From positions 252,501 to 316,500 of the forward strand of contig NZ_CP072360.1 in the NCBI RefSeq assembly GCF_018128065.1: a DNA stretch of 64,000 nt, in the 5' to 3' direction. The notes beneath the pieces were generated by a model that ran no database searches, was not told the origin of the DNA, and saw nothing but the letters and a program-made list of their open reading frames with translations. Shown in pieces: positions 1 through 54,880 of the stretch. Numbering within the stretch: position 1 is the stretch's first letter; each line of letters begins with the position of its first letter. The translations under genes and the position numbers were made by a program. The stretch comes from Prevotella melaninogenica. Lineage in GTDB: Bacteria > Bacteroidota > Bacteroidia > Bacteroidales > Bacteroidaceae.

Positions 1-866
<866 letters not shown>

Positions 867-5768: not shown

Positions 5769-6248
5769 ATGAATAATATTGAGAACTTAGATGAAACAGA
5801 CCGTAAGATACTGCGTATTCTGCAACGTGATTCACACTTAACGGTAAAAGAATTAGCTGTAAAACTCCATCTCTCAACCTCTCCCACCTTTGAACGACAA
5901 AAACGTTTGGAACGTGATGGGTTTATAGAGCGATATATGGCTGTTGTAAATCCACATAAGGTTGGCAATGGTATTATGGTAATGTGTAATATCAGACTCA
6001 AACAACACTCTCAGGAACTCATACAAGAATTCATGAATGTAGTGCAGGGTATTGAGGAAATCACAGAATGTTATAACACCAGTGGCGACTATGATTTCCT
6101 TATTAAAGTCTATGCGCGTGACATGAAAAGCTATCAACAATTCATGCTCAACACCCTTGGAACAATTAATTGTATAGGAAGTTTACATAGTATCTTTATC
6201 ATTGACGAAACAAAGAACACACATGGAGTTCCTATCTCTATGCTTTGA
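5769..6248 (+). CDS. Lrp/AsnC family transcriptional regulator
   Basis: A 159-residue protein of normal family length. Residues about 8-65 form the winged helix-turn-helix (LDETDRKILRILQRD and the recognition region LHLSTSPTFERQKRLE). Residues about 75-150 form the RAM ligand-binding and oligomerisation domain, with the GDYDFLIKV strand. Lrp/AsnC proteins bind amino acids and control amino-acid metabolism genes. The position divergent from metY suggests a sulfur amino-acid role, which is inference. Downstream, convergent with the phosphate transporter gene, come a 22-bp-period repeat array and a terminator hairpin. Confidence 0.88.
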   Translation: MNNIENLDETDRKILRILQRDSHLTVKELAVKLHLSTSPTFERQKRLERDGFIERYMAVVNPHKVGNGIMVMCNIRLKQHSQELIQEFMNVVQGIEEITECYNTSGDYDFLIKVYARDMKSYQQFMLNTLGTINCIGSLHSIFIIDETKNTHGVPISML

Positions 6249-6313
6249 GTTTTAAGGAGTTAATGGCTTATCGAAATCGGCAATGACATCCTTAACTGGT
6301 CTTTCGACCCCTA

Positions 6314-6392
6314 ATAGTTATCGTGCGGACGCTCCGCACATGTTGTGTTGATGGTGAACACATGTTGTGCGAATGGCGAACACCAAATGTGT
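6314..6392. repeat. 22-bp-period palindrome array, family A, locus 1
   Basis: Three 13-bp palindromic cores at 6336, 6358 and 6380 (GCACATGTTGTGT, ACACATGTTGTGC, ACACCAAATGTGT) with 9-base linkers, plus a degenerate unit at 6314. The period is exactly 22 bp. It lies between convergent genes. Confidence 0.85.
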
Positions 6393-6501
6393 TGAAGATT
6401 AAATGAACTGCTCTATGTGGTTAATGAAAGTGCAACCGAATGTTAGAACCCATCAAGTGGTGATACTATAAGCATTCAAGAGATGGAAGTCATGATATAG
6501 T

Positions 6502-6535
6502 AAAGGCAAGGACACACATTGATGCCCCTGCCTTT
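6502..6535. terminator. bidirectional terminator between regulator and transporter genes
   Basis: AAAGGCA(A)GG pairs with CC(C)CTGCCTTT across a 13-14 base loop. It sits between the ends of two convergent genes. Confidence 0.55.
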
Positions 6536-6560
6536 ATCTTGTTTAATCATACTCAAAATT

Positions 6561-8270
6561 TTATGCGTCTTGCTGTCGAACACCCATACGAGCCTCAACA
6601 ACATTGACAACATAGTCGCCTAATTTCTCGCACTCCTGAATGATGTCCATGTACATCGTTCCCACTGCATAGGTGTACTTATGGTCGTTCACATCGTTGA
6701 TATTCTGCGAACGCAACTGATTACGATAGTTGTTGATTTCAGTCTCAATATTGAACGAACGATTCACATCATTGTCCTGACGATGACCAACAAGAATGCG
6801 GTTCATCTGTGTCAGAGCATCATCTGTCAATTCAAACATCTGATGCATGTGGTCATACTGATCTTGCGTGAAGTCTTCCTTGCTATTGATGAGACGGCTG
6901 GAGGTACGAGCAATGTTATAACAAGCATCACCGATACTCTCTAACTCAGAGATTTCACGAAGCATAGAACGTACCTTCTCCTTAGTTTCATCACTCAGAT
7001 GGGCATTAGAAACCTGGTCAAGATACTTCGCAATCTCTATCTCCATATTATCAGAAATACCTTCATACTTCTCAATACGACTGTAAAGTTTGCTGAATTT
7101 ATCCATATCTTTCTCACCAAGTAACTCACGAACCATACCAAACATACGCTGGATACGCTCTGCAAACGACTTTATCTCTTTTGAAGCCTCAAGCACAGAA
7201 AGTTCTGGAGTCTTCATGATACCAGTCTGAATGAAGTGCAGACGGAACTCGTCTTCGTCCTTGTTTGCCTTCGGTTTGATAATAATGCAGACAAGCTTCT
7301 CTAAATACTTGATTGGTCCAACGAGGATAGCTGTGTTGGCAAGGTTGAATGTGGTATGGAAAGCAGCAAGCACAAAACTTAGTTTGGCAGCATTAGCCGC
7401 AAAACCAGGCGCGCCTTTTGGCATATTTACATCATAACCCACCCAATCGCATACCATATTGATAAAAGGATGGAAAACACATAATACCCAGAGAACACCA
7501 AAGACATTGAACACCATGTGAGCCATCGCAGCACGACGTGCCTGCGTGTTAGCCGTCAAAGCAGCGAGGTTTGAGGTTACTGTCGTACCGATATTCTCAC
7601 CCATTACAAGTGCAATACCCTGATAAATAGGCAGTACGCCCGTTGAACAGAGTATCATCGTGATAGCCATGATAGCTGCAGAACTCTGCACACACATGGT
7701 CAACACGCTACCAATAAGTAGGAAAACAATAGTTGTTACGAAGCTTTGTGGGTCAAAATGACTAAAAAAGTCGAGTACAGCCTGATTATGTGCAAGATCC
7801 ATGTCAATACCCGTTTGGCGCAAAGTTCCCAATCCAAGGAACATAAAAGAGATACCAAAGAGAAAATCACCGATGAGTTTACGCTTCTTAGAGTAAATCA
7901 GTGCGATACCAACAAAGAATGCTGGCCAGACGAAATCGGTAATATTAAACGAGAAACCAGCTGACATAATCCATGCCGTTAGCGTCGTTCCGATGTTCGC
8001 TCCCATAATAACCGAGATGGCTTGAAGCAATGTCAACAACCCTGCATTCACAAAGCTAACCGTCATCACCGTCGTTGCTGTTGATGATTGTACAGCAGCT
8101 GTGATGAACGTACCCGTAAGAATACCAGTAAACCGGTTTGTAGTCATTGCGCCAAGAATGTGACGCAACTGTGGACCTGCCATTTTCTGCAGAGCCTCAC
8201 TCATAGTTTTCATACCGAACATTAGCAATGCCAATGCTCCAATGAGCTTAAAGAAAATCCAAATCGACAT
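6561..8270 (-). CDS. Na+/phosphate cotransporter with PhoU-like C-terminal domain
   Basis: A 569-residue inner-membrane protein of the NptA/YjbB type, moving phosphate with sodium. The two inverted PNaS repeats are clear. The first has QSST (61-64) and GANIGTT (90-96); the second has QSSAA (195-199) and GENIGTT (224-230). Hydrophobic segments fill residues 1-330. Residues about 355-560 are helical and charged like PhoU, often regulatory in these fusions. It is single-gene and convergent with the Lrp/AsnC gene. Import or export direction cannot be read from sequence. Confidence 0.88.
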   Translation of the reverse strand: MSIWIFFKLIGALALLMFGMKTMSEALQKMAGPQLRHILGAMTTNRFTGILTGTFITAAVQSSTATTVMTVSFVNAGLLTLLQAISVIMGANIGTTLTAWIMSAGFSFNITDFVWPAFFVGIALIYSKKRKLIGDFLFGISFMFLGLGTLRQTGIDMDLAHNQAVLDFFSHFDPQSFVTTIVFLLIGSVLTMCVQSSAAIMAITMILCSTGVLPIYQGIALVMGENIGTTVTSNLAALTANTQARRAAMAHMVFNVFGVLWVLCVFHPFINMVCDWVGYDVNMPKGAPGFAANAAKLSFVLAAFHTTFNLANTAILVGPIKYLEKLVCIIIKPKANKDEDEFRLHFIQTGIMKTPELSVLEASKEIKSFAERIQRMFGMVRELLGEKDMDKFSKLYSRIEKYEGISDNMEIEIAKYLDQVSNAHLSDETKEKVRSMLREISELESIGDACYNIARTSSRLINSKEDFTQDQYDHMHQMFELTDDALTQMNRILVGHRQDNDVNRSFNIETEINNYRNQLRSQNINDVNDHKYTYAVGTMYMDIIQECEKLGDYVVNVVEARMGVRQQDA

Positions 8271-8383: not shown

Positions 8384-10051
8384 ATGATTATGAGACAAGT
8401 ACTGCATATCCGTTGCAAAAATAATAAAAAAACTCAAGAAGTCCCAATCGGAAGTACACTTTCTGACATTTATAAGGAAATTAATCTCCAAATACCTTAC
8501 GGACCAGTGAGTGCAAAAGTGAACAATAAGGTGGAAGGACTCCATTATCGTGTCTATCATAATAAGGACATAGAGTTCCTCAACCTGCTTTCACCATCAG
8601 GTATTCGCACTTACACCCGCTCGCTCTTCTTAGTGCTCTGTAAGGCTGTCCACGACCTTTATACGGGTAGTCAAGTGATTATAGACATCCCTGTTTCAAA
8701 TGGTTACTACTGTAACTTGAAGCTTGGACATGAGATTACAACAGAGGATGTTGACCGCATCCGTACACGAATGCAGGAGATTATCGACGCTAAGATGCCT
8801 ATCCAGCGTTACGAAACAACAACCGAGGAGGCTGTTAAGCTGTTCACTGAGTTAGGCGATATACAAAAGGCTAAACTCCTTAAAAGCAGCGGTAGCCTTT
8901 ATTGTGTCTATTATGTGCTTGACGATTATAAGGATTATTACTATGGTTCGATGCTTACCAACACGAGTCAACTTCATCTCTTTGGGTTGGAGCCTTACTT
9001 TGATGGGGTCCTCTTGCGTATCCCTTCCGTACAAGACCCTTCTAAATTAGGTGAATTGATACGTCAAGACAAGATGTTCGAGGTGTTCAAGGAGCATCAT
9101 AGATGGCAGAGTATCTTAGGCATTAAAACTGTAGGTGACTTCAACGAGGCGGTAAAGAATGGACTGGCAACCGACCTTATCAATGTCAGTGAGGCTCTGC
9201 AAGAAAAGAAGATATCGCAGATTGCCGATACGATTGCTGAACGAAAAGAGATAAAGGTAGTACTCATTGCCGGACCATCTTCGAGCGGTAAGACAACATT
9301 CTGTAAACGCCTTTCAGTCCAACTATTAGCAAGTGGTGTGAAACCTGTACAGATATCCTTAGATGATTACTTCGTTAACAGGGCGGAAACACCGAAAGAC
9401 GAGAATGGAGAACTTGATTATGAGAGTATCTATGCACTGAATATTCCACTTATCAATGAGCAGTTTAATGCACTTTTCCGTGGTGAAGAGGTGGAATTAC
9501 CAAAGTATAATTTCCAAACCGGAATGAGTGAAAAGAGCGGTAAAAAACTGCATCTTGGAGAGAATAACATACTACTTGTGGAAGGTATTCACGCACTCAA
9601 CCCTGCACTGACAGAGCAGATTGCAGACGACAAGAAGTTTAAAATCTACGCATCTGCCCTCACTACAATCCTGTTAGACGACCATAACTATATCCCAACA
9701 ACCGACAATCGACTACTTCGTCGTATTGTTCGCGATTACAAGTATCGTGGTTGTTCTGCACAAGAAACAATCCACCGCTGGCCAAGTGTACGTGCCGGTG
9801 AGAACAAGTGGATTTTCCCTTATCAAGAACAGGCTGATGTAATGTTCAACACGGCAATGCTCTTTGAACTTGCCGTCATTAAAACGCAAGCGGAAGAAGT
9901 GTTGGAACAAGTGCCAGAGAACTGTGAGGAATATGCTGAAGCCTATCGTCTGCGCAAGTTCCTCAAGTATTTTGCACCACTACCTTTCCGCAATCTCCCT
10001 CCAACATCCCTACTGAGAGAGTTCTTAGGAGGTAGTTCGTTTAAGTATTAG
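8384..10051 (+). CDS. uridine kinase-like P-loop protein with TGS-type N-terminus
   Basis: A 555-residue cytoplasmic protein with three parts. Residues about 5-70 look like a TGS/ubiquitin-like domain. Residues 70-250 resemble the editing-domain region of threonyl-tRNA synthetase. Residues about 288-490 form a uridine kinase/phosphoribulokinase domain with P-loop GPSSSGKT (297-304) and the following DDYFVNR segment. Proteins of this architecture are common in Bacteroidota and usually annotated as nucleoside kinases; the role of the N-terminal half is unknown. ATGs at 8384 and 8390 are both possible starts. It is monocistronic, with a strong terminator. Confidence 0.82.
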   Translation: MIMRQVLHIRCKNNKKTQEVPIGSTLSDIYKEINLQIPYGPVSAKVNNKVEGLHYRVYHNKDIEFLNLLSPSGIRTYTRSLFLVLCKAVHDLYTGSQVIIDIPVSNGYYCNLKLGHEITTEDVDRIRTRMQEIIDAKMPIQRYETTTEEAVKLFTELGDIQKAKLLKSSGSLYCVYYVLDDYKDYYYGSMLTNTSQLHLFGLEPYFDGVLLRIPSVQDPSKLGELIRQDKMFEVFKEHHRWQSILGIKTVGDFNEAVKNGLATDLINVSEALQEKKISQIADTIAERKEIKVVLIAGPSSSGKTTFCKRLSVQLLASGVKPVQISLDDYFVNRAETPKDENGELDYESIYALNIPLINEQFNALFRGEEVELPKYNFQTGMSEKSGKKLHLGENNILLVEGIHALNPALTEQIADDKKFKIYASALTTILLDDHNYIPTTDNRLLRRIVRDYKYRGCSAQETIHRWPSVRAGENKWIFPYQEQADVMFNTAMLFELAVIKTQAEEVLEQVPENCEEYAEAYRLRKFLKYFAPLPFRNLPPTSLLREFLGGSSFKY

Positions 10052-10068
10052 ATACGCTTCTACCATAT

Positions 10069-10105
10069 AAAAGGTGCGCTTTTGACTCTCAAAAGCGCAC
10101 CTTTT
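10069..10105 (+). terminator. intrinsic terminator of the uridine-kinase-like gene
   Basis: Perfect 16-bp stem (10069-10084 with 10090-10105), loop ACTCT, then a T-rich tract. Its inner CTTTT-N7-AAAAG and the following CTTTT 22 bases on match the 22-bp family at 26633. Confidence 0.85.
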
Positions 10106-10169
10106 ATTTTATTAGCTATCATCAGTTTCTCATTGTTCATTGACCATAGCAAACAAAGAGACAAAGCTA

Positions 10170-10856
10170 TTACTTTATTTTACGTTCCAATACTTTCAGC
10201 AAGTCAAAAGGATGTCTCTTCATGTCTTTCAATGAGAATCCATCACCCTGCAGGTACTCATCCATCTTTGGGAAACGATCAAAACACATACGAAGTGTTT
10301 TCTTAGCAGCCATACGTATGCCCGTTTCAGGAACATAATAAGTCACAACAACTTCGTCACCTTTAAGACAATAAGTATAAGCCCATGACTCTTCAGTATA
10401 AAATGTTGTCCCTGAACTACTATACCATACTGTTGGAGATAAAAAACCAAGTACTTCTTTCCCTTCATAAGTCAATTCCCAAAAGTACCGATGATTTGTT
10501 GGCTTCAAATTTTTAGGTAACGTTAATACCTTGCATGCATATAAAGACAAGTATTTACGTTGCTTCCCATCTACTGTTAACTCCATTTCTTTTGCATCAT
10601 CAGCTACATACTTTGTTCCCTTACCCGTTGATGTAGGTGAGATAAACAATGTCTGCATATTAATAATGGACTGACCATAAACACTTGCCATAACCTTTGC
10701 ATTCTTTACATCAACCAAATAACCTGACACTTTGCTACCATCTTTGAGCGTAAGGACGCATGGTAAAGGTTTGAATTCCTTTTTCTTAGCACTTACTGAG
10801 ACGATGCCAATCAACAACATTAGCATCATCAACATGATTACATTAATCTTTTTCAT
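10170..10856 (-). CDS. secreted protein of unknown function
   Basis: A 228-residue protein that I cannot assign to a named family. It has a Sec signal peptide of about 23 residues (hydrophobic core LMLLIGIVSVS, likely cut after ASA/SAK). The mature part opens with KPLPCVLTLKDGSKVSGYLV, a strand-rich segment that resembles small beta-barrel repeats seen in other Bacteroidota exported proteins. No lipobox and no transmembrane segment after the signal, so it is probably periplasmic. It has its own -7 element upstream and is followed by the uridine-kinase terminator from the opposite strand. Confidence 0.6.
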   Translation of the reverse strand: MKKINVIMLMMLMLLIGIVSVSAKKKEFKPLPCVLTLKDGSKVSGYLVDVKNAKVMASVYGQSIINMQTLFISPTSTGKGTKYVADDAKEMELTVDGKQRKYLSLYACKVLTLPKNLKPTNHRYFWELTYEGKEVLGFLSPTVWYSSSGTTFYTEESWAYTYCLKGDEVVVTYYVPETGIRMAAKKTLRMCFDRFPKMDEYLQGDGFSLKDMKRHPFDLLKVLERKIK

Positions 10857-10899
10857 AACTCATTTTATTGTTTTAGTTAGAGTTCTTTCGTTAACAATA

Positions 10900-10907
10900 C
10901 AAAGATA
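10900..10907 (-). promoter_or_regulatory. -7 element of the secreted protein gene
   Basis: TATCTTTG on the minus strand, 44 bases before the ATG. The -33 region is only a loose match. Confidence 0.5.
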
Positions 10908-11157
10908 TACAACAAATGTGAAACAGAGAAAGAAACTTCTAAAGTTTTGCAAATCTTTTTTTATAATATTGCTATCCAATAAAAGTGAAAAAGAATAGCT
11001 CTATTGCTGCATCTTTGTAGTTACCTCTATGGTATTACCTTTGATAAAACAAACCTCCTCTAACCAAATAATGTTAGTTACTTTTACGTAATACAACTCT
11101 TTTCTGACATTAAATTAATTCCACATTAATAGCCTATTGCGAGGTGTTTAGCCATCC

Positions 11158-11214
11158 GCACCATTCGTGCGAACCAACAACACCATTCGTGCTAACCATC
11201 AACACGACACGTGC
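11158..11214. repeat. 22-bp-period palindrome array, family A, locus 2
   Basis: Cores GCACCATTCGTGC (11158), ACACCATTCGTGC (11180) and ACACGACACGTGC (11202), joined by 9-base linkers. It lies in the 915-base gap 10857-11771. That gap also holds a family B repeat and an ISL3-like element, and no gene that I can see. Confidence 0.88.
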
Positions 11215-11410
11215 GGTATAACAACAGTACCTCTAAAGATGACAAAAAAGGAGACATTATGTTCATTATAACGAATATAATAAACTGCAAAACAAGGTAA
11301 CTTTACTCAGTTTTAAAATGCAAAAAGCAAAGGAATAAAAAGGTAAAAACCAAACTCTAAAACTTAGAAACTAATCTTTACTGATTTACTTTCATACAAA
11401 AAAGAAAATA

Positions 11411-11450
11411 TTTTCACGAGAAGAAGAATTTATTTTCATGAAAAGAATTA
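11411..11450. repeat. 22-bp-period repeat, family B, locus 1
   Basis: Two units, TTTTCACGAGAAG and TTTTCATGAAAAG, with CACGAG at 11415 and CATGAA at 11437, exactly 22 bases apart. It abuts the ISL3-like element. Confidence 0.55.
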
Positions 11451-11451
11451 T

Positions 11452-11705
11452 GGGTCTTCAGGAATTTGGAGTGATAGTGTTTAATATCTGATTATCAATA
11501 ACATTTATAATTTATATACTTTTATATCCCTTTGTTTACTGATATTAAAGAATACAAAGTACTAATTTAAAGGTTACGAAAGTTGTTGTTGTATCACATG
11601 GGTTATACACGCTACAAAACGCTTATAATGAACTATTTACAAATTTTCTTTACTAACAAGTGGCATAAAGGACATCATCGCATCACTCCAAATTCCGGAA
11701 GAGCC
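11452..11705. mobile_element. MITE-like element with ISL3-family-type ends
   Basis: 254 bases bounded by inverted repeats of about 24 bases. The left end starts GGGTCTTCAGGAATTTGG (11452) and the right end, read outward on the minus strand, starts GGCTCTTCCGGAATTTGG (ending at 11705). Both share GGAATTTGGAGTGAT exactly. The GGNTCTTC start is typical of ISL3-family insertion sequences. The interior is AT-rich and has no transposase or other reading frame. Flanking 8-mers do not match, so no target duplication is visible. It is best read as a non-autonomous derivative or a deletion remnant. Confidence 0.65.
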
Positions 11706-11771
11706 CTTTTATTGTGTTTATAGTTGCTGTTTCCGTATCATAAAATCACCTTATCATACAGCTTGATAAAG

Positions 11772-12392
11772 TTATTCGTTTTCTCCTTCTTCATCAGCAA
11801 TCTTCGGAGCTATGAATTTGACAGCTTTTCTGAAAGCACTGATAGGGCTAATCTTTCGCTTTCTTATTTCATCACTTGACAGTAAAGTAGCCTTATTGTC
11901 ATTGTGTTCAACAAGGATAAAAGCTAAACCATCATAGCGTACACGTAGTCTATCAGACACTATCTGATGGTAGGCTTTCCGGTATTTCTCCTGCTTCATA
12001 AAGGAATCTGAACGTGAGCAGAGGAAGACGATGCGGTTGTCAATCTTGAAATAATGCGTAGGATAGATATCATCAACAGACCATTCTCCACCCATAAACG
12101 CGTCATAATAAGCAGGATGGATAACAAAAACGTCACTGTTGATATAGACACCATTTGTATAAACACCATGGTCTTCGTATCCATATCCACATTTAAGAAT
12201 AAACGTACTATCCTTAGGATATTGCTTAATAAAACGATGAATGCATCCCAAAAAGGCTGATTTCATCTCTGTGGTGTCTACAAGAACCAAACTGTCTAAT
12301 GCATTACTTTCTGTTGTTTTTTGACAAGTCTTATTACAACAGGAGGATAGGAGGGTAAGAAGAAAGACGAAGAAGAGTGCAGTTTGTTTCAT
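11772..12392 (-). CDS. lipoprotein of unknown function
   Basis: A 206-residue predicted lipoprotein that I do not recognise. The signal MKQTALFFVFLLTLLSSC has a lipobox-like LSSC, with two adjacent cysteines, Cys18 and Cys19, as possible anchors. The mature part contains a GYGYEDHGVYTNG stretch and a C-terminal region rich in Lys and Glu. It lies 59 bases after the GT9 gene on the same strand, close enough for co-transcription, though a functional link is not evident. Confidence 0.6.
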   Translation of the reverse strand: MKQTALFFVFLLTLLSSCCNKTCQKTTESNALDSLVLVDTTEMKSAFLGCIHRFIKQYPKDSTFILKCGYGYEDHGVYTNGVYINSDVFVIHPAYYDAFMGGEWSVDDIYPTHYFKIDNRIVFLCSRSDSFMKQEKYRKAYHQIVSDRLRVRYDGLAFILVEHNDNKATLLSSDEIRKRKISPISAFRKAVKFIAPKIADEEGENE

Positions 12393-12451
12393 ACTTTCAT
12401 TATGTTGAAGTCTTATATCTTTATTCTTTAAAATCTTTCTATATTCTATTC

Positions 12452-13501
12452 CTACAGCAATCCCTCTTCAATACGCTGAATAATCTCTTCAGGAAGGATA
12501 TTATTCATACAAGCAAAGTCGCCACGATGGCAAGGTTTATTGCCAAAGACAGAGCAAGGACGGCAAGAGAGCGTATTGATTTGTACGGCATCTTCTTCCT
12601 TTTGATGCCAACCCATGAAGCCACAATAAGGATGAGTTGCACCCCATACGCTTACAACACGAGTGTTAGTAAGGGAAGCAAGGTGCATGTTAGCACTATC
12701 CATTGACAGCATAGTGTCGAGATGACTCATAAGAATAAGTTCCTTTTCGAGTCCTTTCAGTACATTGGCAACACATAGACATTGCGTATACTGTGTTGCC
12801 CATTGGTTCAACACTTCTATCTCATGTTTACCACCACCGAAGAGAAAGATACGCCAAGAAGAATGTTTCTCGGTCAGTTTACGCACCACTCGTTCCATCC
12901 TTTGCAGTGGATACATCTTACCTGCATGGGCTGCAAAGGGTGCTATACCTATCCAACATTCCTCTGGTTGTTTTATACCTATCGTATTAGGGAGACTCTG
13001 TAGGTCGCCACCTTCAGCTGGAAAGATACTCGTAAAGTCAGGTTTAATAGGATAGCCCAATGCTTCGAGTACATCAGCATAGTTTTGGAAGGAGGTAGGC
13101 TGTTGTATGAATACTTTGTTTTCAGTTTGGCATAAGCGTTTCTTCCCCTGTTTATGTTTGTTGATATGTGCTACGGAATAGCCACCAAGGAGGAAACGAA
13201 GACGGAGAATACGTGTACGTAGCACATTATGAAAATCAGCTACAGCAGTGAATTGTTTTGCAACTAAACGCCGATAAAGCGTATTAAGTCCTCTAAAACC
13301 TTTATATTCTCCTTTCAAGTCAGCAGCCATAAATTCGACATTTGGTGCTAAATGCTCGAAGAATGGCTGTGCAAAAGGACGAGAAAGCACACTGATTCTT
13401 ATATCAGGATACTGTTTAGCAAGCGAGTAAACAATAGGGACTGTCATGGCAATATCGCCCATAGCAGAGAATCTTATAATAAGAATATGTGGAGTTTTCA
13501 T
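12452..13501 (-). CDS. glycosyltransferase family 9 (heptosyltransferase-like)
   Basis: A 349-residue cytoplasmic or membrane-associated GT-B enzyme. The N-terminal ILIIRFSAMGDIAMTVP motif is the family 9 signature for ADP-heptose-type transferases that build the LPS core. The C-terminal half has the second Rossmann domain with MSMDSANMHLASL and the VSVWGATHP strand that bind the nucleotide sugar. Length is normal. It sits downstream of a DUF4254 gene, with a G/C-rich hairpin between them. The acceptor is not known. Confidence 0.87.
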   Translation of the reverse strand: MKTPHILIIRFSAMGDIAMTVPIVYSLAKQYPDIRISVLSRPFAQPFFEHLAPNVEFMAADLKGEYKGFRGLNTLYRRLVAKQFTAVADFHNVLRTRILRLRFLLGGYSVAHINKHKQGKKRLCQTENKVFIQQPTSFQNYADVLEALGYPIKPDFTSIFPAEGGDLQSLPNTIGIKQPEECWIGIAPFAAHAGKMYPLQRMERVVRKLTEKHSSWRIFLFGGGKHEIEVLNQWATQYTQCLCVANVLKGLEKELILMSHLDTMLSMDSANMHLASLTNTRVVSVWGATHPYCGFMGWHQKEEDAVQINTLSCRPCSVFGNKPCHRGDFACMNNILPEEIIQRIEEGLL

Positions 13502-13633
13502 TGGCTAACAAACATAAAGAAGCAAAGGATAATAAATAGAGAGGATTGCTATAATTAGTAGGGATAAGCAATAAGATGACTTATCTGATAACTAATAAAG
13601 CTCGTTCAAATTTACTCTTATCGAGTAATTGCA

Positions 13634-13659
13634 CCCCTCCCTTTGAAAAGCGGGAGGGG
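13634..13659. repeat. C/G-rich hairpin repeat, copy 2
   Basis: CCCCTCCC pairs with GGGAGGGG across a 10-base loop, between the DUF4254 and GT9 genes. On the plus strand it is followed by a T-rich tract. It could attenuate GT9 transcription. Confidence 0.6.
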
Positions 13660-13666
13660 GATTATT

Positions 13667-14272
13667 TTATTTCTTATTATAAAGAATCGGATTGGTTGCA
13701 GGGTCGTTGTACATCTTCATCTGACGATAAACCTTCATATACTTGCGACCATGCTGAATGTCGTCAAGCAATTGGTCAATGGCAAGACTAAGATCCTTTT
13801 GTTGTTCAAGGAGGATATTCAGCTTAGACTTACATTTCTCAATATGTTCAGCTGAAGCATCCGTGCGCTCAGTTTGCTCTTTCATGTGGTAAATTTTCAA
13901 TGCAAGGATTGACAAACGGTCAACAGCCCATGCTGGACTCTCGGTATTGATAGTCGCATCAGGGAGCGGCGTAACGTCAGAGTAGAGTTGACGGAAATAT
14001 GAATCAATCTGCTCAACGAGGTCAGTACGATCCTGATTAGAGCGGTCAATACGATGCTTGAGGCTCATTCCTTCCTCAGGATTGATATGTGGGTCACGGA
14101 TAAGATCCTCAAAATGCCATTGAACTGTGTCAATCCAGCATTTCAGATAGAGACGGTTTTCAATGGAATCTCTGTCGTAAGGGTTATTAATAGGCGTGTC
14201 TACATTGTCCGTAATATGGTAATCACGGATAGCCTGATTGAAAATCTCGTTACAATGTTTTGTAAATGACAT
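13667..14272 (-). CDS. DUF4254 domain protein
   Basis: A 201-residue soluble, helix-rich protein. It fits the DUF4254 family of Bacteroidota, including the N-terminal MSFTKHCNEIFNQAI and the WHFEDLIRDP segment. The function of the family is not known to me. I start it at 14272 rather than at the upstream ATG at 14329, because the predicted promoter (14300-14330) lies inside the longer version and family members begin at this Met. It is upstream of a family 9 glycosyltransferase, a pairing that suggests an envelope polysaccharide context. Confidence 0.82.
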   Translation of the reverse strand: MSFTKHCNEIFNQAIRDYHITDNVDTPINNPYDRDSIENRLYLKCWIDTVQWHFEDLIRDPHINPEEGMSLKHRIDRSNQDRTDLVEQIDSYFRQLYSDVTPLPDATINTESPAWAVDRLSILALKIYHMKEQTERTDASAEHIEKCKSKLNILLEQQKDLSLAIDQLLDDIQHGRKYMKVYRQMKMYNDPATNPILYNKK

Positions 14273-14299
14273 TCGATTTTTATTTTTCTGTTTATTTTG

Positions 14300-14330
14300 C
14301 AAATATATAGTAAATTCCTTAAAGGACAAA
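14300..14330 (-). promoter_or_regulatory. promoter of DUF4254 gene
   Basis: On the minus strand TTTG (14327-14330), 19 bases, TATATTTG (14300-14307). It sets the transcript start near 14293 and so rules out the longer coding start. Confidence 0.72.
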
Positions 14331-14570
14331 ATAAAAGCTCTTGTTTTTCATTGTTTATCACTTAAAACCAAATCGTTCATTAGAGCCTAAAACTATTTTG
14401 TTTTATTATTGAGCAGATTGTCTGTCTTTATTCGCAGGCGTAGTGAACTACATCAAGTAACAAAGATTGATAACATACCGATAAGAAATACCCCTCTAAG
14501 TGGATTTCATGCTCTTATAAGACCTTTCTAAATATAACACATAGCTACACTATAAGTTTATATTTTGTTT

Positions 14571-14653
14571 GCTGTCATTTTAACAGTTAGTATTAACTAT
14601 TTGTAAACTAATTGTTTATAAGTTTATAAACCCTGACAGGAGTGACAGGAAAA
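14571..14653. repeat. CTGTCA-bounded 80-bp element, copy 1
   Basis: It begins GCTGTCATTTTAAC and ends CTGACAGGAGTGACAGGAAAA, with a variable AT-rich middle. Related copies lie at 18626 and 32540. The rest of the gap 14331-15199 holds a family A array and AT-rich DNA without a visible gene. Confidence 0.65.
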
Positions 14654-14837
14654 TTATTTTGTCCCACTGACTATCTACGATTGAATTCCATTTATTTCTT
14701 GTTTTTTCTAAATATGGAGTGATATAGTTTCCTCCATACTAATGATATTTCTTAGTTAATATATGCTATTCCTCCGTATTTTACGAATGAGCTATAATCA
14801 ACCTTTTACCCTCACTAATTTACGTACGGAGGGGACA

Positions 14838-14894
14838 GCACGTATAGTGCAGATGCTGAACACCATTGGTGCGAACGCTTAGCACGGATGGTGC
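14838..14894. repeat. 22-bp-period palindrome array, family A, locus 3
   Basis: Cores GCACGTATAGTGC (14838), ACACCATTGGTGC (14860) and GCACGGATGGTGC (14882) at an exact 22-bp period, between divergent genes upstream of acpP. Confidence 0.88.
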
Positions 14895-15199
14895 GGATGG
14901 TTTATATCCATGTAAAGAACCTATTACAATCAAAGTGAAAACAACTATTAAGGTGTTACATTGTGGCGGATAGAATGCGTTTGATGAGTGATAACAAACA
15001 ACGTTATTGTATTTTCGTCTTAATAATAAGGTGTGGTAGTTTATTAAATCAGTTTAATTTCAATCAGTGGCATAAATAAAGTTTTGAATAATCAGATATA
15101 ATTGTTTGATTTTTCGTATAATTAAGTGACAAAATGGCAAAATTTATGCACAAAGATATATAGTTTGTGCAACGAAGAGTGCTTTTTTAATCAAAAAAC

Positions 15200-15230
15200 T
15201 TGCACACATGGAAAAAAAACATTTCCTTTG
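15200..15230 (+). promoter_or_regulatory. acpP promoter
   Basis: TTG (15200-15202), 20 bases, TTCCTTTG (15223-15230). The -7 element differs from consensus at one position. The leader would be about 47 bases. Confidence 0.5.
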
Positions 15231-15283
15231 CAACCGCATTTTGAATTTGGAAATCAATATTAAACATTTTAAAACTTACAATT

Positions 15284-15520
15284 ATGTCAGAAATTGAATC
15301 AAAAGTAAAGGCTATTATCGTAGAGAAGCTCGGCGTTGATGAGGCTGAGGTAAAGCCAGAGGCAAGTTTCACAAACGACCTTGGTGCTGACTCTTTGGAC
15401 ACTGTAGAGCTCATCATGGAGTTCGAGAAGGAGTTCGGTATTTCTATTCCAGACGATAAGGCTGAGAAGATCTCTACAGTAGGCGATGCTATCTCTTACA
15501 TTGAGGAGAACGCTAAGTAA
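15284..15520 (+). CDS. acpP: acyl carrier protein
   Basis: A 78-residue acidic four-helix protein that carries growing acyl chains in type II fatty acid synthesis. The phosphopantetheine attachment site is Ser37 in [10 protein letters not shown]. Length and sequence are normal for AcpP. fabF follows after 86 bases, but a strong terminator hairpin lies between them, so acpP is probably made in excess of fabF. This pairing is standard in Bacteroidota. Confidence 0.97.
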
Positions 15521-15541
15521 GGTTTACTCAAGATAAAAGTA

Positions 15542-15577
15542 CCAAGCAAAGCGTACGTCTTTGCTTGGCTTTTTTTT
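15542..15577 (+). terminator. intrinsic terminator between acpP and fabF
   Basis: CCAAGCAAAG-CGTACGT-CTTTGCTTGG, a perfect 10-bp stem followed by C and at least eight T. Probably partial read-through to fabF. Confidence 0.85.
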
Positions 15578-15606
15578 ACTTTACTTTTTTAATTTATATT
15601 TCACGC

Positions 15607-16869
15607 ATGGAATTAAAAAGAGTAGTTGTAACAGGTCTTGGCGCCGTTACTCCATTGGGTAACACTCCAGAGGAGACCTGGCAGAACATGCTGGCAGGTA
15701 AGAGTGGTGCTGCTCCTATTACACATTTCGATACAAGCCTTTTCAAGACAAAGTTTGCTTGTGAGGTAAAAGACCTTAACATCAATGATTACATTGACCG
15801 TAAGGAGTCTCGTAAGCTTGATCGTTACACTCAGTTGGCTATGATTAGTGCCATTCAGGGTGTTAAAGACGCTAACTTTGACATGGAGAAGCTTGATAAG
15901 AACCGTGTCGGTGTTATTTACGGTGTAGGTATTGGTGGTATCAAAACTTTTGAGGATGAGGTGACTTATTACGCTCAGCATCCTGAGAATGGTCCTAAGT
16001 TCAATCCTTTCTTCATTCCGAAGATGATTGCAGATATCGCTTCTGGACAGATTAGTATTCTGTATGGATTCCACGGTCCTAACTATACAACAACATCTGC
16101 TTGTGCTTCATCAAGCAACGCTTTGGCTTCAGCATTCAACCAGATTCGTCTTGGTAAGGCTGATGTTATTGTTAGTGGTGGTGCTGAGGCAGCAATCTGC
16201 GCTTGTGGTGTAGGTGGTTTCAATGCTATGCATGCACTTTCTACACGCAACGATGACCCAGAACATGCTTCACGTCCATTCTCAGCAAGTCGCGATGGCT
16301 TCGTAATGGGTGAGGGTGCTGGTTGTCTTATCCTTGAGGAGTTAGAGCATGCAAAGGCTCGTGGTGCTAAGATTTACGCAGAGATGGTTGGTGAAGGTGA
16401 GTCAGCTGACGCTCATCATATTACTGCTTCTCACCCAGAGGGTCTCGGTGCTAAACTCGTTATGAAGGCAGCACTTGAGGATGCTGGTTTGAAGCCAGAG
16501 GATATTGACTATATCAATGTTCACGGTACATCAACTCCTGTTGGTGACCTCTCTGAGGCAAAGGCTATCAAGGCTTTGTTTGGTGATGCTGCTTACAAGT
16601 TGAATATCTCTTCTACAAAGAGTATGACAGGTCACCTCCTCGGTGCAGCTGGTGCTGTAGAGGCTTTGGCTTGTGTCATGTCTGTGAAGGAAGATATCGT
16701 TCCTCCAACTATCAACCATGAGGAAGATGATAAGGATCCTGAATTGGATTACAACTTGAACTTTACGTTCAACAAGGCACAGAAACGTGAGGTACGTGCT
16801 GCACTTAGCAACACCTTCGGTTTCGGTGGTCACAATGCTTGTGTTGTATTCAAGAAGTATGCTGAATAA
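15607..16869 (+). CDS. fabF: beta-ketoacyl-ACP synthase II
   Basis: A 420-residue elongating condensing enzyme of type II fatty acid synthesis that joins malonyl-ACP to acyl-ACP. The catalytic triad is in place: Cys166 (TTSACASSS), His306 (NVHGTSTP) and His343 (TGHLLGAAG). I start at MELKRVVVTGLGAVTP (15607), where the family begins; the earlier in-frame Met at 15565 would lie inside the acpP terminator. The stop codon overlaps the rnc start by 11 bases, showing tight coupling. Confidence 0.96.
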   Translation: MELKRVVVTGLGAVTPLGNTPEETWQNMLAGKSGAAPITHFDTSLFKTKFACEVKDLNINDYIDRKESRKLDRYTQLAMISAIQGVKDANFDMEKLDKNRVGVIYGVGIGGIKTFEDEVTYYAQHPENGPKFNPFFIPKMIADIASGQISILYGFHGPNYTTTSACASSSNALASAFNQIRLGKADVIVSGGAEAAICACGVGGFNAMHALSTRNDDPEHASRPFSASRDGFVMGEGAGCLILEELEHAKARGAKIYAEMVGEGESADAHHITASHPEGLGAKLVMKAALEDAGLKPEDIDYINVHGTSTPVGDLSEAKAIKALFGDAAYKLNISSTKSMTGHLLGAAGAVEALACVMSVKEDIVPPTINHEEDDKDPELDYNLNFTFNKAQKREVRAALSNTFGFGGHNACVVFKKYAE

Positions 16870-17929
16870 TATAATTGATAGAATAAAGCTCCCTTTCCGC
16901 ACGGAGAAGGAGCTTTATTTGTCTTTGTACCAAATTATTGGCATTATCCCACACGATATCAGTTATTATAAGACTGCACTCTTGCACAAGAGCGTAGCAC
17001 ATCGTAACGCAAAGGGTAAACCAGTTAACAATGAACGCCTTGAGTTTTTGGGTGATGCTATTCTTGATGCCATTGTTGGTGACATTGTTTATGAGCATTT
17101 CCCAGGTAAGCGTGAAGGTTTCCTGACGAACACCCGTTCAAAGATAGTACAACGCGATACGCTAAATCGTCTGGCAAAAGAGATGGGAATCGGACAATTG
17201 ATTCTCTCTAACGGGCATACGTCTTCGCATAACAGCTATTTGGGTGGTAATGCTTTTGAGGCACTTGTAGGCGCTCTCTACCTTGACCATGGCTACAATG
17301 CTTGTATGAAGTTCATGAAGCAACAAGTTCTTGGGAAGCTTATCAATATTGACAAGGTTGCTTACAAGGAGGTGAACTTCAAGTCAAAGCTCATCGAATG
17401 GAGCCAAAAGAACAAGGTGAAGATGGAGTTCAAGCTGATTGAAAACCAAAAAGACCAGCAAGGTAGTCCTACCTTCCATTTTCAGGTGATTATAGAGGGT
17501 ATTCCATGCGGTGAGGGGCATGGTTATTCAAAGAAAGAGAGTCAGCAAGAAGCTTCTAAACTTACGCTTCAACGTCTGCGTCGTGAACCTCAGTTTATAG
17601 ATGAGGTATTCGCTGCCAAAGCAAACCGTACAAAGATGGAAGAGGAACCAGTGCTCAATGTTCCTGAAACGACACAGGACATGAACTTCATTGAAGGTTC
17701 TGAACCAAAGGCTGAAAAGCATGAGAATCCTTTCCAAACAGAAGTTTTTGATGAGAAATCATCAGCCGCTGATGAAAAGATAGAAGCACAAAATGAATCT
17801 TCTGTAGCATCAGAACGAAAGGAAGACAATGAGGATTTTGACCTCTCTGATATCTCTCATTTAAAACCTATTGACCGTGAATCCATCATCGCAGCTGCTG
17901 AGGCAGAAGCGTTTGATGAGGATAAATAG
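16859..17929 (+). CDS. rnc: ribonuclease III with long acidic C-terminal tail
   Basis: A 356-residue double-strand RNA endonuclease for rRNA processing and RNA turnover. The RNase III signature NNERLEFLGDAILD (57-70) and the second acidic motif NAFEALVGALYLD (131-143) are present, followed by the dsRNA-binding domain (about 172-242). The start ATG at 16859 overlaps the fabF end; a longer start would lie deep in fabF. Bacterial enzymes usually end soon after the dsRNA-binding domain, at about 220-250 residues. Here about 110 residues rich in Glu, Asp, Ser and Ala follow, with no domain that I recognise and probably disordered. Confidence 0.93.
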   Translation: MLNNIIDRIKLPFRTEKELYLSLYQIIGIIPHDISYYKTALLHKSVAHRNAKGKPVNNERLEFLGDAILDAIVGDIVYEHFPGKREGFLTNTRSKIVQRDTLNRLAKEMGIGQLILSNGHTSSHNSYLGGNAFEALVGALYLDHGYNACMKFMKQQVLGKLINIDKVAYKEVNFKSKLIEWSQKNKVKMEFKLIENQKDQQGSPTFHFQVIIEGIPCGEGHGYSKKESQQEASKLTLQRLRREPQFIDEVFAAKANRTKMEEEPVLNVPETTQDMNFIEGSEPKAEKHENPFQTEVFDEKSSAADEKIEAQNESSVASERKEDNEDFDLSDISHLKPIDRESIIAAAEAEAFDEDK

Positions 17930-17945
17930 CAGGACAAAAACAAAA

Positions 17946-18020
17946 ATAACAGGCGTTTACAGCCGATGGTAAGTGATAAATACATCCTTTCGTTCACTAT
18001 CTTCTGTAAACGCCTGTTAT
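17946..18020 (+). terminator. large hairpin after rnc
   Basis: Perfect 17-bp stem (17946-17962 with 18004-18020, containing AACAGGCGTTTACAG) closing a 41-base loop that has its own AGTGA/TCACT pair. A T-rich tract follows. Terminator, possibly also an RNase III substrate. Confidence 0.65.
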
Positions 18021-18352
18021 CTTTTGGCTGTTTTCTTATCATATATTAAGCCTCTATTAATCCTATAATCAAGTACTTAATATGTTAGAACTCTAATCTA
18101 CATTCTACGACATATTTACGAGAAGAGGAATAGTTCTATAACGAATCGTGTGGGTAAATAGTTTTTTCCTTGCCAGCGTTCCTATGTTTAATGGCTTTAT
18201 GGCTGAACAGATGAAGACGAATTAATCTACAAAGTATAAAGGTGTTTGAGCTAAACAAGCTTCTACACACCTCCTGTTTATTCTTAGTATTACAACATTT
18301 TGCTCACAATTCATCCCCTGTCATCCATATATCATAGTGAATTTAACCCTCC

Positions 18353-18431
18353 GCACATGTGGTGTTAACCTTCCGCACCATATGTGCTAAGCATCAGCAC
18401 AACATGTGCAGAGTATCAGCACCGCAGCAAA
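18353..18431. repeat. 22-bp-period palindrome array, family A, locus 4
   Basis: Cores GCACATGTGGTGT (18353), GCACCATATGTGC (18375), GCACAACATGTGC (18397) and a half unit at 18419, exact 22-bp period. It lies in the 1-kb gap between rnc and nrdA. That gap contains no gene that I can see. Confidence 0.88.
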
Positions 18432-18625
18432 TGATGGTAAACATTCACAAACATTGTATGAAATAAGACCTTAAAACATCCTTTTCCCTTGGCTAAAGTA
18501 TTAAAGTGTAAAACGCTAAAACTAAACTGAACAAATCAATTCTTTCTATAAGTACAACAGATATTATTCTAATCGGGGCAAACAATCCAAACGATTCGTT
18601 ATAGAGCCAGAGAATATTATTAATG

Positions 18626-18706
18626 GCTGTCATTTTAAAATTTGTATAAACTCATTATAAACCTATCAGTTAAATAAGAATAATGGGTGACGATAGTGAC
18701 AGGAAA
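18626..18706. repeat. CTGTCA-bounded 80-bp element, copy 2
   Basis: It begins GCTGTCATTTTAAA and ends GTGACGATAGTGACAGGAAA. The distance from the left GCTGTCA to the right GTGACAGG is 70 bases, against 71 and 72 in the other copies. Confidence 0.6.
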
Positions 18707-18725
18707 GTCTACTTTATTTTTACTT

Positions 18726-22869: not shown

Positions 22870-22926
22870 GCACCATCGGTGTTTACCCTCCGCACATCAT
22901 GTGCTGGGAATCAACACCAACCGAAA
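22870..22926. repeat. 22-bp-period palindrome array, family A, locus 5
   Basis: Cores GCACCATCGGTGT (22870) and GCACATCATGTGC (22892), then a half unit ACACCAACC at 22914. It lies directly beside the DnaA-box cluster. Confidence 0.8.
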
Positions 22927-26568: not shown

Positions 26569-26632
26569 TTATGAATATTAATTAGTTGAAATTTGTAAAC
26601 TATTTTTATGCGGTTTAAACCCAATACATGCT

Positions 26633-26737
26633 CTTTTAGCTTCTAAAAGACGCCCTTTTGGCTTGCAAAAGATGCCCTTTAAGCCCCTTACTAACGCCCT
26701 TTTGAAGTCCAATTAAGCACCTTTTACTTTGCTACTT
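26633..26737. repeat. 22-bp-period repeat, family C
   Basis: CTTTT starts at 26633, 26655, 26677, 26699 and 26721, exactly 22 bases apart each time. The first two units form CTTTT-N7-AAAAG palindromes joined by ACGCC or ATGCC. The rest of the gap 26499-27028 shows nothing more than the lgt terminator. Confidence 0.8.
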
Positions 26738-36630: not shown

Positions 36631-36813
36631 GGTCCTATTGTACTTAGCTAACAAGTCCTAAGTTTTTACTGAAAAGCTCTTAAGCTTTTACTGAAAAGCT
36701 CCTAAGCTTTTACTAAAAAGCTCCAGACAACTTAGCGAACAAGTCCTATCGTACCCAGCGAATATGTCCTATTGTACCCAACCGCTGGGTACGATAGGAC
36801 CCAGCAGCTGGGT
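36631..36813. repeat. 22/23-bp-period repeat array, family D
   Basis: Seven units starting TCCTA or similar at 36633, 36656, 36678, 36700, 36722, 36744 and 36767. The inner units read TCCTAAGCTTTTACTGAAAA. The end folds into a strong hairpin (36767-36800, CCTATTGTACCCA with TGGGTACGATAGG). It lies upstream of the sigma gene and downstream of the S41 gene. Confidence 0.8.
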
Positions 36814-41010: not shown

Positions 41011-41089
41011 ACACGATTGGTGCTTACCAAGAACACCATGCGTGCTAAGCCTTAGCACCATCTGTGCTGAGGGCTAACACATTAGCAGA
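41011..41089. repeat. 22-bp-period palindrome array, family A, locus 6
   Basis: Cores ACACGATTGGTGC (41011), ACACCATGCGTGC (41033), GCACCATCTGTGC (41055) and a half unit at 41077. It lies between the divergent U32 and miaB promoters. Confidence 0.88.
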
Positions 41090-47657: not shown

Positions 47658-47710
47658 TACCTTGCGATTTGCCTTCCTTAAGCGTTTTATATGATGGTCA
47701 ATGGCGAATT

Positions 47711-47803
47711 ATTTTCATGAAAAAAAATATTTATTATCATGAAGAAAAATATTTATTTACGTGAAAAAAAATATTTCCACCCGTGAAAATAAATGTCTAT
47801 GTG
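47711..47803. repeat. 22-bp-period repeat array, family B, locus 2
   Basis: Four units of the type TTTTCATGAAAAAAAATATT, with the C of CATGAA or CGTGAA at 47716, 47738, 47760 and 47782, exactly 22 bases apart. It lies in the 353-base gap before the second LtaS-like gene; apart from the hairpin at 47629, nothing else is seen in that gap. Confidence 0.85.
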
Positions 47804-54801: not shown

Positions 54802-54880
54802 TCTATTGTTGTGTTACTGCTTAGCACCAATCGTGCGAACGCCCCGCACCATGTGTGCGGACGCCTAACACCAATGGTGC
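54802..54880. repeat. 22-bp-period palindrome array, family A, locus 7
   Basis: Half unit GTGT at 54811, then cores GCACCAATCGTGC (54824), GCACCATGTGTGC (54846) and ACACCAATGGTGC (54868). It lies between convergent genes and is the cleanest set of palindromes. Confidence 0.9.

What the first reader, a model, noticed from the sequence alone, without database searches (positions are those of the whole stretch)
54802..54880. Seven intergenic arrays of one 13-bp palindrome with a strict 22-bp period
RCAC-N5-GTGY cores separated by exactly 9 bases occur at 6314-6392, 11158-11214, 14838-14894, 18353-18431, 22870-22926, 41011-41089 and 54802-54880. Each has two to four units. Sequence inside the core and linkers varies, but the half-sites and spacing do not. 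That is what selection on paired protein contacts on one helix face, or on a repeated RNA hairpin, would give. All seven lie between genes, in convergent, divergent and tandem settings, so a simple role as promoter or terminator does not explain them. I know of no named family with this form.
Basis: partly seen in the sequence, partly recalled or inferred. Interest (0 to 1): 0.78.

Follow-up and report, generated by a model that had tools for sequence, protein, structure and literature searches.

The report
Evenly spaced phased DNA-binding-site arrays
Scattered between the genes of this Prevotella are short arrays of a repeated DNA motif at an exact 22-base pitch in which evolution has held still mainly the few letters a protein would touch, and related species carry arrays of the same shape with different letters, which points to an undescribed class of protein-binding sites on the chromosome.

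Summary
In detail: 13 two-unit matches in the window, 0 in 100 shuffles; 218 in the genome, 0 for the reversed pattern. In 424 kb, cores lie only 22 or 44 bp apart. Arrays are intergenic (60 of 61 placed) without orientation preference. In two relatives about 90% identical, 9 of 11 and 10 of 11 are at the same gap. There CAC/GTG letters differ at 3/168, 3/186 and 0/174 sites against 4-17% in spacers, and all 19 R/Y changes are transitions. Mirror positions show no excess of base pairing. This fits paired protein contacts, not hairpins. On contig C1 no two arrays lie within 3 kb (7.1 expected). A relative nearly without these arrays has the same 4-5-4-9 geometry built on CTTY/RAAG; two others use GAAR/YTTC. 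At seven matched gaps one array family faces another. One window copy rides in an IS66-type miniature transposon. Best explanation: phased operator arrays for a cooperative DNA-binding protein, perhaps architectural. The protein is not identified; my paper searches found no description.

The parts
6314..6392 (.). RCAC array, strict cores at 6336, 6358, 6380 plus a left half-unit; convergent gap 6248-6561
   Evidence: array present in G146, family-C array in G132
11158..11214 (.). RCAC array, strict cores at 11158, 11180, 11202; tandem gap
   Evidence: identical copy in G026 inside a 96%-identical tract
14838..14894 (.). RCAC array, strict cores at 14838, 14860, 14882; divergent gap upstream of an acyl carrier protein-like gene
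   Evidence: orthologous arrays in G132 and G146
18353..18431 (.). RCAC array, strict cores at 18353, 18375, 18397 plus a right half-unit; tandem gap; inside the miniature transposon below
18132..18608 (.). 477-bp miniature transposon-like element with terminal inverted repeats (18132-18155 and 18585-18608) carrying the array
   Evidence: IS66 parent
22870..22926 (.). RCAC array, strict cores at 22870, 22892 plus a right half-unit; tandem gap
   Evidence: orthologous arrays in G132 and G146, none at the place in G003 and G026
41011..41089 (.). RCAC array, strict cores at 41011, 41033, 41055 plus a right half-unit; divergent gap
   Evidence: orthologous arrays in G132 and G146, none in G003 and G026
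54802..54880 (.). RCAC array, strict cores at 54824, 54846, 54868 plus a left half-unit; convergent gap
   Evidence: locus aligned in G132 and G146
11387..11441 (.). 22-bp-period array of another family (B, TTTCATGAAAA type), about 170 bp from the RCAC array; extent approximate
26626..26680 (.). 22-bp-period array of family C (CTTTTG..CAAAAG-RYGCCC type); extent approximate
36659..36713 (.). 22-bp-period array of family D (AAAAGCTCTTAAGCTTTT-ACTG type), only one found in the sample; extent approximate
47709..47763 (.). 22-bp-period array of family B; extent approximate

Best explanation
Each array is a row of phased operator sites on double-stranded DNA. A dimeric, sequence-specific protein reads paired CAC/GTG half-sites (purine before CAC, pyrimidine after GTG); neighbouring dimers sit exactly 22 bp apart, about two helical turns, so they bind side by side on one face and can cooperate. 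Some 150 such arrays per genome (60 counted on C1, the number on C2 estimated from 138 hits), in intergenic DNA and at least 3 kb apart on C1, most likely serve chromosome organisation (loop anchors or domain boundaries) rather than single genes. Related lineages use the same geometry with other half-sites, as expected of paralogous proteins whose recognition surface has switched. SHOWN: geometry, half-site conservation, intergenic placement, spacing on C1, other half-sites at the same geometry, facing of different families at matched gaps. INFERRED: protein binding, dimers, cooperativity, a paralogous protein family. GUESSED: the architectural role.
For: Half-site conservation with R/Y changes 19 of 19 transitions; no excess of base pairing across mirror positions; single pitch 22/44; placement indifferent to gene direction; RCAC arrays kept at the same gap in 9 of 11 (G132) and 10 of 11 (G146) conserved gaps; whole 22-bp units gained or lost at two loci; spacing on C1: 0 gaps under 3 kb against 7.1, 20 gaps of 7-12 kb against 9.9, each p 0.0003; CTTY/RAAG in G026 and G003 and GAAR/YTTC in G329 and G265 at the same 4-5-4-9 geometry.
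Against: No protein is identified; neighbouring genes gave no candidate by eye. Four mirror pairs show statistical dependence (though away from complementarity). RCAC arrays are missing from most sampled genomes: 12 of 150 and 14 of 299 have any match. At the same gaps G026 has an RCAC array in 0 of 9 and some array in 6 of 12. For families B and C selection is not shown. The architectural role rests on spacing and lack of gene logic alone.
Confidence: 0.5

Rival explanations
1. A selfish dispersed repeat (MITE- or BOX-like): copies spread by a transposase, target immunity keeps copies apart, and the half-sites are only what a transposase reads.
For: One subset does ride in an IS66-type miniature element with terminal repeats; 8-bp duplications exact at 3 of 8 copies with both ends, one more with a mismatch, and at the parent. 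Conserved oriented flanks suggest past spreading of the others too. Repulsion fits immunity.
Against: 15 of 73 arrays belong to that element, the rest do not; the element's ends are absent from G132 and G236, which have 267 and 235 hits. Arrays stay at the same gaps between species and half-sites stay frozen in place while spacers and flanks change. RAYT transposase not found in G132, G146, G236.
Confidence: 0.22
2. Operators of an ordinary global transcription regulator with many targets.
For: Paired half-sites in phased tandem are how cooperative repressors bind; 60 start-facing neighbours exist.
Against: 17 of 60 placed arrays lie between convergent genes and only 8 between divergent ones, close to the background of gaps of at least 150 bp (61 and 52 of 256); distances to gene starts vary from tens to hundreds of bp; neighbours are varied housekeeping genes.
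Confidence: 0.12
3. RNA elements: tandem hairpins acting as terminators or processing signals.
For: The cores are inverted repeats; some other 22-bp families (CTTC, family C) could form long hairpins.
Against: No excess of Watson-Crick pairs: the R..Y pair is complementary in 59% against 57% expected, inner and linker pairs below expectation; random orientation; no Rfam match at the arrays.
Confidence: 0.08
4. Neutral tandem repeats made by slippage at a favoured 22-bp length.
For: Units are gained and lost and several unrelated 22-bp-period families exist.
Against: Units in an array differ except at the half-sites; half-sites are conserved between species; lag 22 stands out: 56 loci against a mean of 3.3 and a maximum of 8 at lags 16-20 and 24-33, with 14 at lag 21.
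Confidence: 0.04

Closest known systems
REP / BIME sequences with RAYT transposases
   Same: Dispersed, intergenic, palindromic, many copies; proposed links to supercoiling and nucleoid proteins (PMC3733652, listing and passages)
   Different: No RAYT (Y1 transposase) found in the array-rich G132, G146, G236; no GTAG or CGTC tag in the flank consensus; strict 22-bp unit pitch, half-site conservation
BrickBuilt MITE minisatellites of Porphyromonas gingivalis (PMC4596501, passages)
   Same: Bacteroidales; tandem units of similar length inside a MITE, variable unit number
   Different: 23-nt unit with another sequence; here most arrays are not inside the terminal-repeat element
BOX elements of pneumococcus (recalled)
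   Same: Modular: two distinct caps with a variable number of middle units, intergenic
   Different: Middle units here are 22-bp paired half-sites in which only the half-sites are conserved
Cooperative operators of phage repressors such as lambda CI (recalled)
   Same: Paired half-sites a few bases apart, tandem sites about two turns apart, cooperative binding and looping
   Different: Some 150 chromosomal arrays not tied to one promoter; protein unknown
Chromosome-organising sites such as matS, parS or Noc sites (recalled)
   Same: Dispersed palindromic sites thought to be read by a resident protein
   Different: Those are mostly single sites, often confined to one chromosome region; here multi-unit arrays along the chromosome with half-sites that differ between lineages

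Membership tests
REP/BIME (RAYT-mobilised) | A resident RAYT (Y1_Tnp) transposase | tested here: not met
   PF01797: no match in G132, G146, G236, G329, G124; in G000 two adjacent matches, one with an in-frame stop; some genomes without arrays have it
REP/BIME (RAYT-mobilised) | GTAG or CGTC tag at one end | tested here: not met
   Flank profiles show no such tag at a conserved place
BrickBuilt | 23-nt repeat of the published consensus within an element with terminal inverted repeats | tested here: not met
   Different unit sequence and length; terminal-repeat element in a minority
IS66-derived MITE (window 18132-18608 only) | Terminal inverted repeats shared with an IS66 element | tested here: met
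   Ends shared with a 2.66-kb element holding PF05717 and PF03050 reading frames
IS66-derived MITE (window 18132-18608 only) | 8-bp target duplication | tested here: inconclusive
   Not seen at the window copy; exact at L030, L032, L061 and at the parent, one mismatch at L036, not seen at L026, L042, L062
ISL3-derived MITE | ISL3 transposase with the same ends | tested here: not met
   ISL3 transposases exist in G000 but the fetched loci do not carry these ends
Cooperative operator array of a dimeric protein | Conserved symmetric half-sites with tolerant spacer | tested here: met
Cooperative operator array of a dimeric protein | Constant helical phasing between sites | tested here: met
   Only 22 and 44 bp
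Cooperative operator array of a dimeric protein | A protein that binds it | not testable with these tools
   No binding data; neighbours gave no candidate by eye
Structured RNA | Compensatory changes in stems | tested here: not met
   No excess of Watson-Crick pairs; some mirror pairs are dependent but not complementary

The most novel reading that the evidence does not exclude
Bacteroidaceae chromosomes carry a general, undescribed class of sites: intergenic arrays of paired half-sites at a common 22-bp pitch, read by a family of paralogous cooperative DNA-binding proteins whose recognition letters switch between lineages while geometry, and in part position, are kept, and which divide the chromosome into segments of several kilobases.
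Probability: 0.35. Interest if true: 0.92.

Novelty: new variant of a known kind. Interest (0 to 1): 0.78.

Why it matters
If a resident protein reads these arrays, they would be spaced anchor sites visible directly in the sequence of common human commensals, and would make the question of what sets kilobase-scale chromosomal domains in bacteria testable by removing defined sites. Different half-sites at one fixed geometry would also be a natural experiment in how a protein and its many sites change specificity together.

Tried and rejected
ISL3 origin of the miniature element: guessed from its ends and 8-bp duplications (recalled); rejected when the relative with the same ends proved to carry IS66 genes. 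RAYT/REP origin: rejected. RNA hairpin: disfavoured. A binding-protein gene next to an array: none seen among neighbour translations read by eye; I scanned only the three IS66 frames against Pfam. Families B and C by 'unit-conserved' positions: 0.050 against 0.094 in flanks, but choosing positions unchanged in one genome about halves the rate under neutrality, so it is no evidence; for the same reason the first half-site rates (1/162, 1/180) were redone with arrays called in either genome. Facing of families at matched gaps: 6 of 12 gaps with an array in G000 also have one in G026 against 2 of 52 without (p 0.0003), but gap length confounds this; among gaps of at least 200 bp in both it is 5 of 10 against 0 of 4, p 0.22; in G003 1 of 3 against 1 of 7. 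The genome-collection scan (118 stretches, 80 listed with names) includes homogeneous tandem repeats in unrelated bacteria that match by chance. The complementary-phase pattern finds no further locus on C1, but remnants exist: of 17 single strict cores in 424 kb, L021:15809 has an array-like linker, and one miniature-transposon copy lacks a recognisable array (L026:18112). One search failed part-way and its labels were shifted because some requested stretches did not exist; redone. The G000 totals of 544 kb and 56 lag-22 loci count one 20-kb stretch twice (L027 lies inside L089-L090), 2 of the 56.

Full report
OBSERVATION. RCAC-N5-GTGY-N9-RCAC-N5-GTGY occurs 13 times in the window and in none of 100 shuffles. 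The whole genome (3.34 Mb, two contigs; window = C2:252501-316500) has 218 hits per strand and none for the reversed pattern. In an unbiased 424 kb sample, core pairs within 150 bp are 22 bp (31) or 44 bp (10) apart and nothing else. The complementary-phase pattern GTGY-N9-RCAC-N5-GTGY-N9-RCAC has 243 hits and finds the same 60 loci on C1. Both lists are capped but reach the end of C1; C2 was not listed, and the remaining 138 hits suggest some 90-105 loci there.

ANATOMY. 73 distinct arrays were collected: all 60 of C1, the 7 of the window and 6 from C2 samples; 45 have two strict cores and 28 three. Flanks are conserved and oriented (one side reads about TTTACCATCTTT...GTGY) and arrays usually run from a GTGY-N9-RCAC block to another. 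When only CAC/GTG is required, the base before CAC is a purine in 236 of 238 cores and the base after GTG a pyrimidine in 237 of 238. Inner letters are biased (RCACMWNWKGTGY), the linker reads about Y-KRASSMTYM-R. Mirror positions are not more complementary than expected from their composition (R..Y 59% against 57%; the variable inner and linker pairs all below expectation). Four of these pairs do show dependence beyond 300 shuffles, but away from complementarity.

PLACEMENT. Of 61 arrays that could be placed (12 pieces were too short), 60 are intergenic: tandem 35, convergent 17, divergent 8, against 143, 61 and 52 among gaps of at least 150 bp; the gene caller is a simple hexamer-scored ORF caller of my own. 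The element's own orientation relative to its neighbours is spread over all four combinations (19, 17, 16, 8). On C1 the 60 arrays are more evenly spaced than chance. With gaps over 50 kb removed and a null drawn from intergenic slots: no gap under 3 kb against 7.1 expected (p 0.0003), 20 gaps of 7-12 kb against 9.9 (p 0.0003). With all gaps kept: 0 against 5.2 (p 0.0022) and 20 against 9.0 (p 0.0003) (uniform null). Large array-free stretches exist (up to 153 kb).

CONSERVATION. Stretches of two relatives (G132, G146; about 90% identical) were compared. Where both neighbour genes are conserved, a gap with an RCAC array in G000 also has one in 9 of 11 cases (G132) and 10 of 11 (G146), but in 0 of 9 in G026 and 0 of 3 in G003. 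With arrays called in either genome of a pair (10, 11 and 11 loci), CAC/GTG positions differ at 3/168 (G000-G146), 3/186 (G000-G132) and 0/174 (G132-G146); the N5 and N9 spacers at 37/310, 58/339 and 14/317 (Fisher p 4e-5, 7e-9, 3e-3). The R/Y positions differ at 7/55, 9/61 and 3/58, all 19 as transitions, against 48 transitions and 61 transversions in the spacers. The number of strict core pairs differs in 9 of 32 comparisons; at two loci the alignment shows an exact 22-bp step (140657, one unit more in G132; 168580, one fewer in G146).

A TRANSPOSON PASSENGER. Fourteen arrays, one of them window 18353, align over much of about 470 bp with inverted terminal repeats; seven of them have both ends within four mismatches, and a fifteenth is partial. 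Whole genomes: 20 and 22 ends on the two strands in G000, 1 and 1 in G146, 2 in G124, none in G132, G236, G026 or G003. A 2.66-kb element at G000:C1 38,084-40,743 has the same ends, an 8-bp duplication, an IS66 TnpB frame (PF05717), an IS66 transposase (PF03050) in two overlapping frames, and an array near its right end. So an IS66 element carries an array and short derivatives spread it in this lineage; most arrays are not in this element.

OTHER HALF-SITES, SAME GEOMETRY. G026, about 78-80% identical and with only 2 RCAC hits, still shows lag-22 and lag-44 self-similarity in intergenic DNA. Reading the loci shows CTTC-N5-GAAG cores with 9-bp linkers. The two-unit pattern CTTY-N5-RAAG-N9 has 31 hits in G026, 16 in G003 and 0 in the other 14 genomes searched; its reversed control, meant as a null, hit 57 times in G329, 52 in G265 and once in G003. 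Searched directly, GAAR-N5-YTTC-N9 gives the same numbers and 0 in the other 20 of 23. RCAC hits: G132 267, G146 262, G236 235, G329 32, G265 31, G124 23, G305 21, G011 15, G429 7, G003, G026 and G433 2 each; 12 of 150 genomes of the genus draw and 14 of 299 of the family draw have any match, own genome included, draws overlapping, single hits possibly chance. A 2.5-unit pattern is found in 1 of 60 genomes drawn from the class, the own one.

A WIDER 22-BP SIGNAL. Loci with at least 22 of 33 matches at lag 22: G000 56 in 544 kb (2 of them counted twice), G132 39 in 186 kb, G146 36 in 187 kb, G026 59 in 435 kb, G003 11 in 40 kb; in 80 kb each G279 6, G292 6, G010 3, G367 2, G219 1. Means at lags 16-20 and 24-33 in these genomes are 0.07-3.3, with maxima up to 13. 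G444 and G454, from other families of the class, and 50 kb of E. coli have 0. In G000 55 of 56 lie outside long ORFs. Lag 21 gives 14 in G000. Several unrelated families contribute. For these I have no proof of selection.

DIFFERENT FAMILIES AT THE SAME GAP. Of 64 gaps conserved between G000 and G026, 6 have an array in both, 6 only in G000, 2 only in G026. In the six, families differ: RCAC faces CTTC (twice), a GATAC type and a TTGGACA type; family B faces CTTC and a TATAC type. A seventh is G000x 175217: RCAC in G000, family C in G132, both sides conserved. At window 6248-6561, RCAC is in G000 and G146; G132 has a family-C array beside the same left-hand gene and a paralogue of the right-hand one; G026 and G003 have a TGATAC/GTTTCA-type array beside the right-hand gene, their left side not being alignable. 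The association is significant but confounded by gap length.

MECHANISM. Letters frozen only at symmetric triplets, purine/pyrimidine readout beside them, no pairing constraint, a two-turn pitch and indifference to transcription point to side-by-side dimers on double-stranded DNA, working like the cooperative operators of phage repressors (recalled). Spacing and lack of gene logic suggest an architectural role, which is a guess. No protein is identified.

LITERATURE. Seven searches and passages of three papers (PMC4596501; PMC5771137; PMC3733652) show no description of such arrays. The library lacks most subscription journals, so this is weak evidence of novelty.

Noticed in passing
   Followed up: no
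window about 11464-18711: The segment between about 11.5-11.8 kb and 18.0-18.7 kb is inverted in both G132 and G146 relative to the window; the second breakpoint region holds the miniature transposon with the array.
   Followed up: partly
window 9958-11305: 96% identical to G026, which is otherwise about 78-80% identical; includes the array at 11158, one of the few RCAC arrays in G026. Looks like recent horizontal transfer.
   Followed up: partly
L088 near 12510 (G000:C2 near 389,000): An array abuts TGTTTCACGTGGAACA, which fits the parS consensus as I recall it, conserved in G132 and G146.
   Followed up: no
G000:C1 427,815-581,004 and 607,201-729,229: Two long stretches without RCAC arrays.
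   Followed up: no
L086:9650-12523: An IS66-type transposase frame about 1.1 kb from a single array of another 22-bp family (E, ATGTTACTCTGTCTT type).
   Followed up: no
G026 loci L223-L242: A separate abundant intergenic palindrome (GAC 13 bases before GTC, roughly GGACAGACG..CGTCTGTCC).
   Followed up: no
window 1-866: Part of a 16S ribosomal RNA gene on the minus strand.
   Followed up: no
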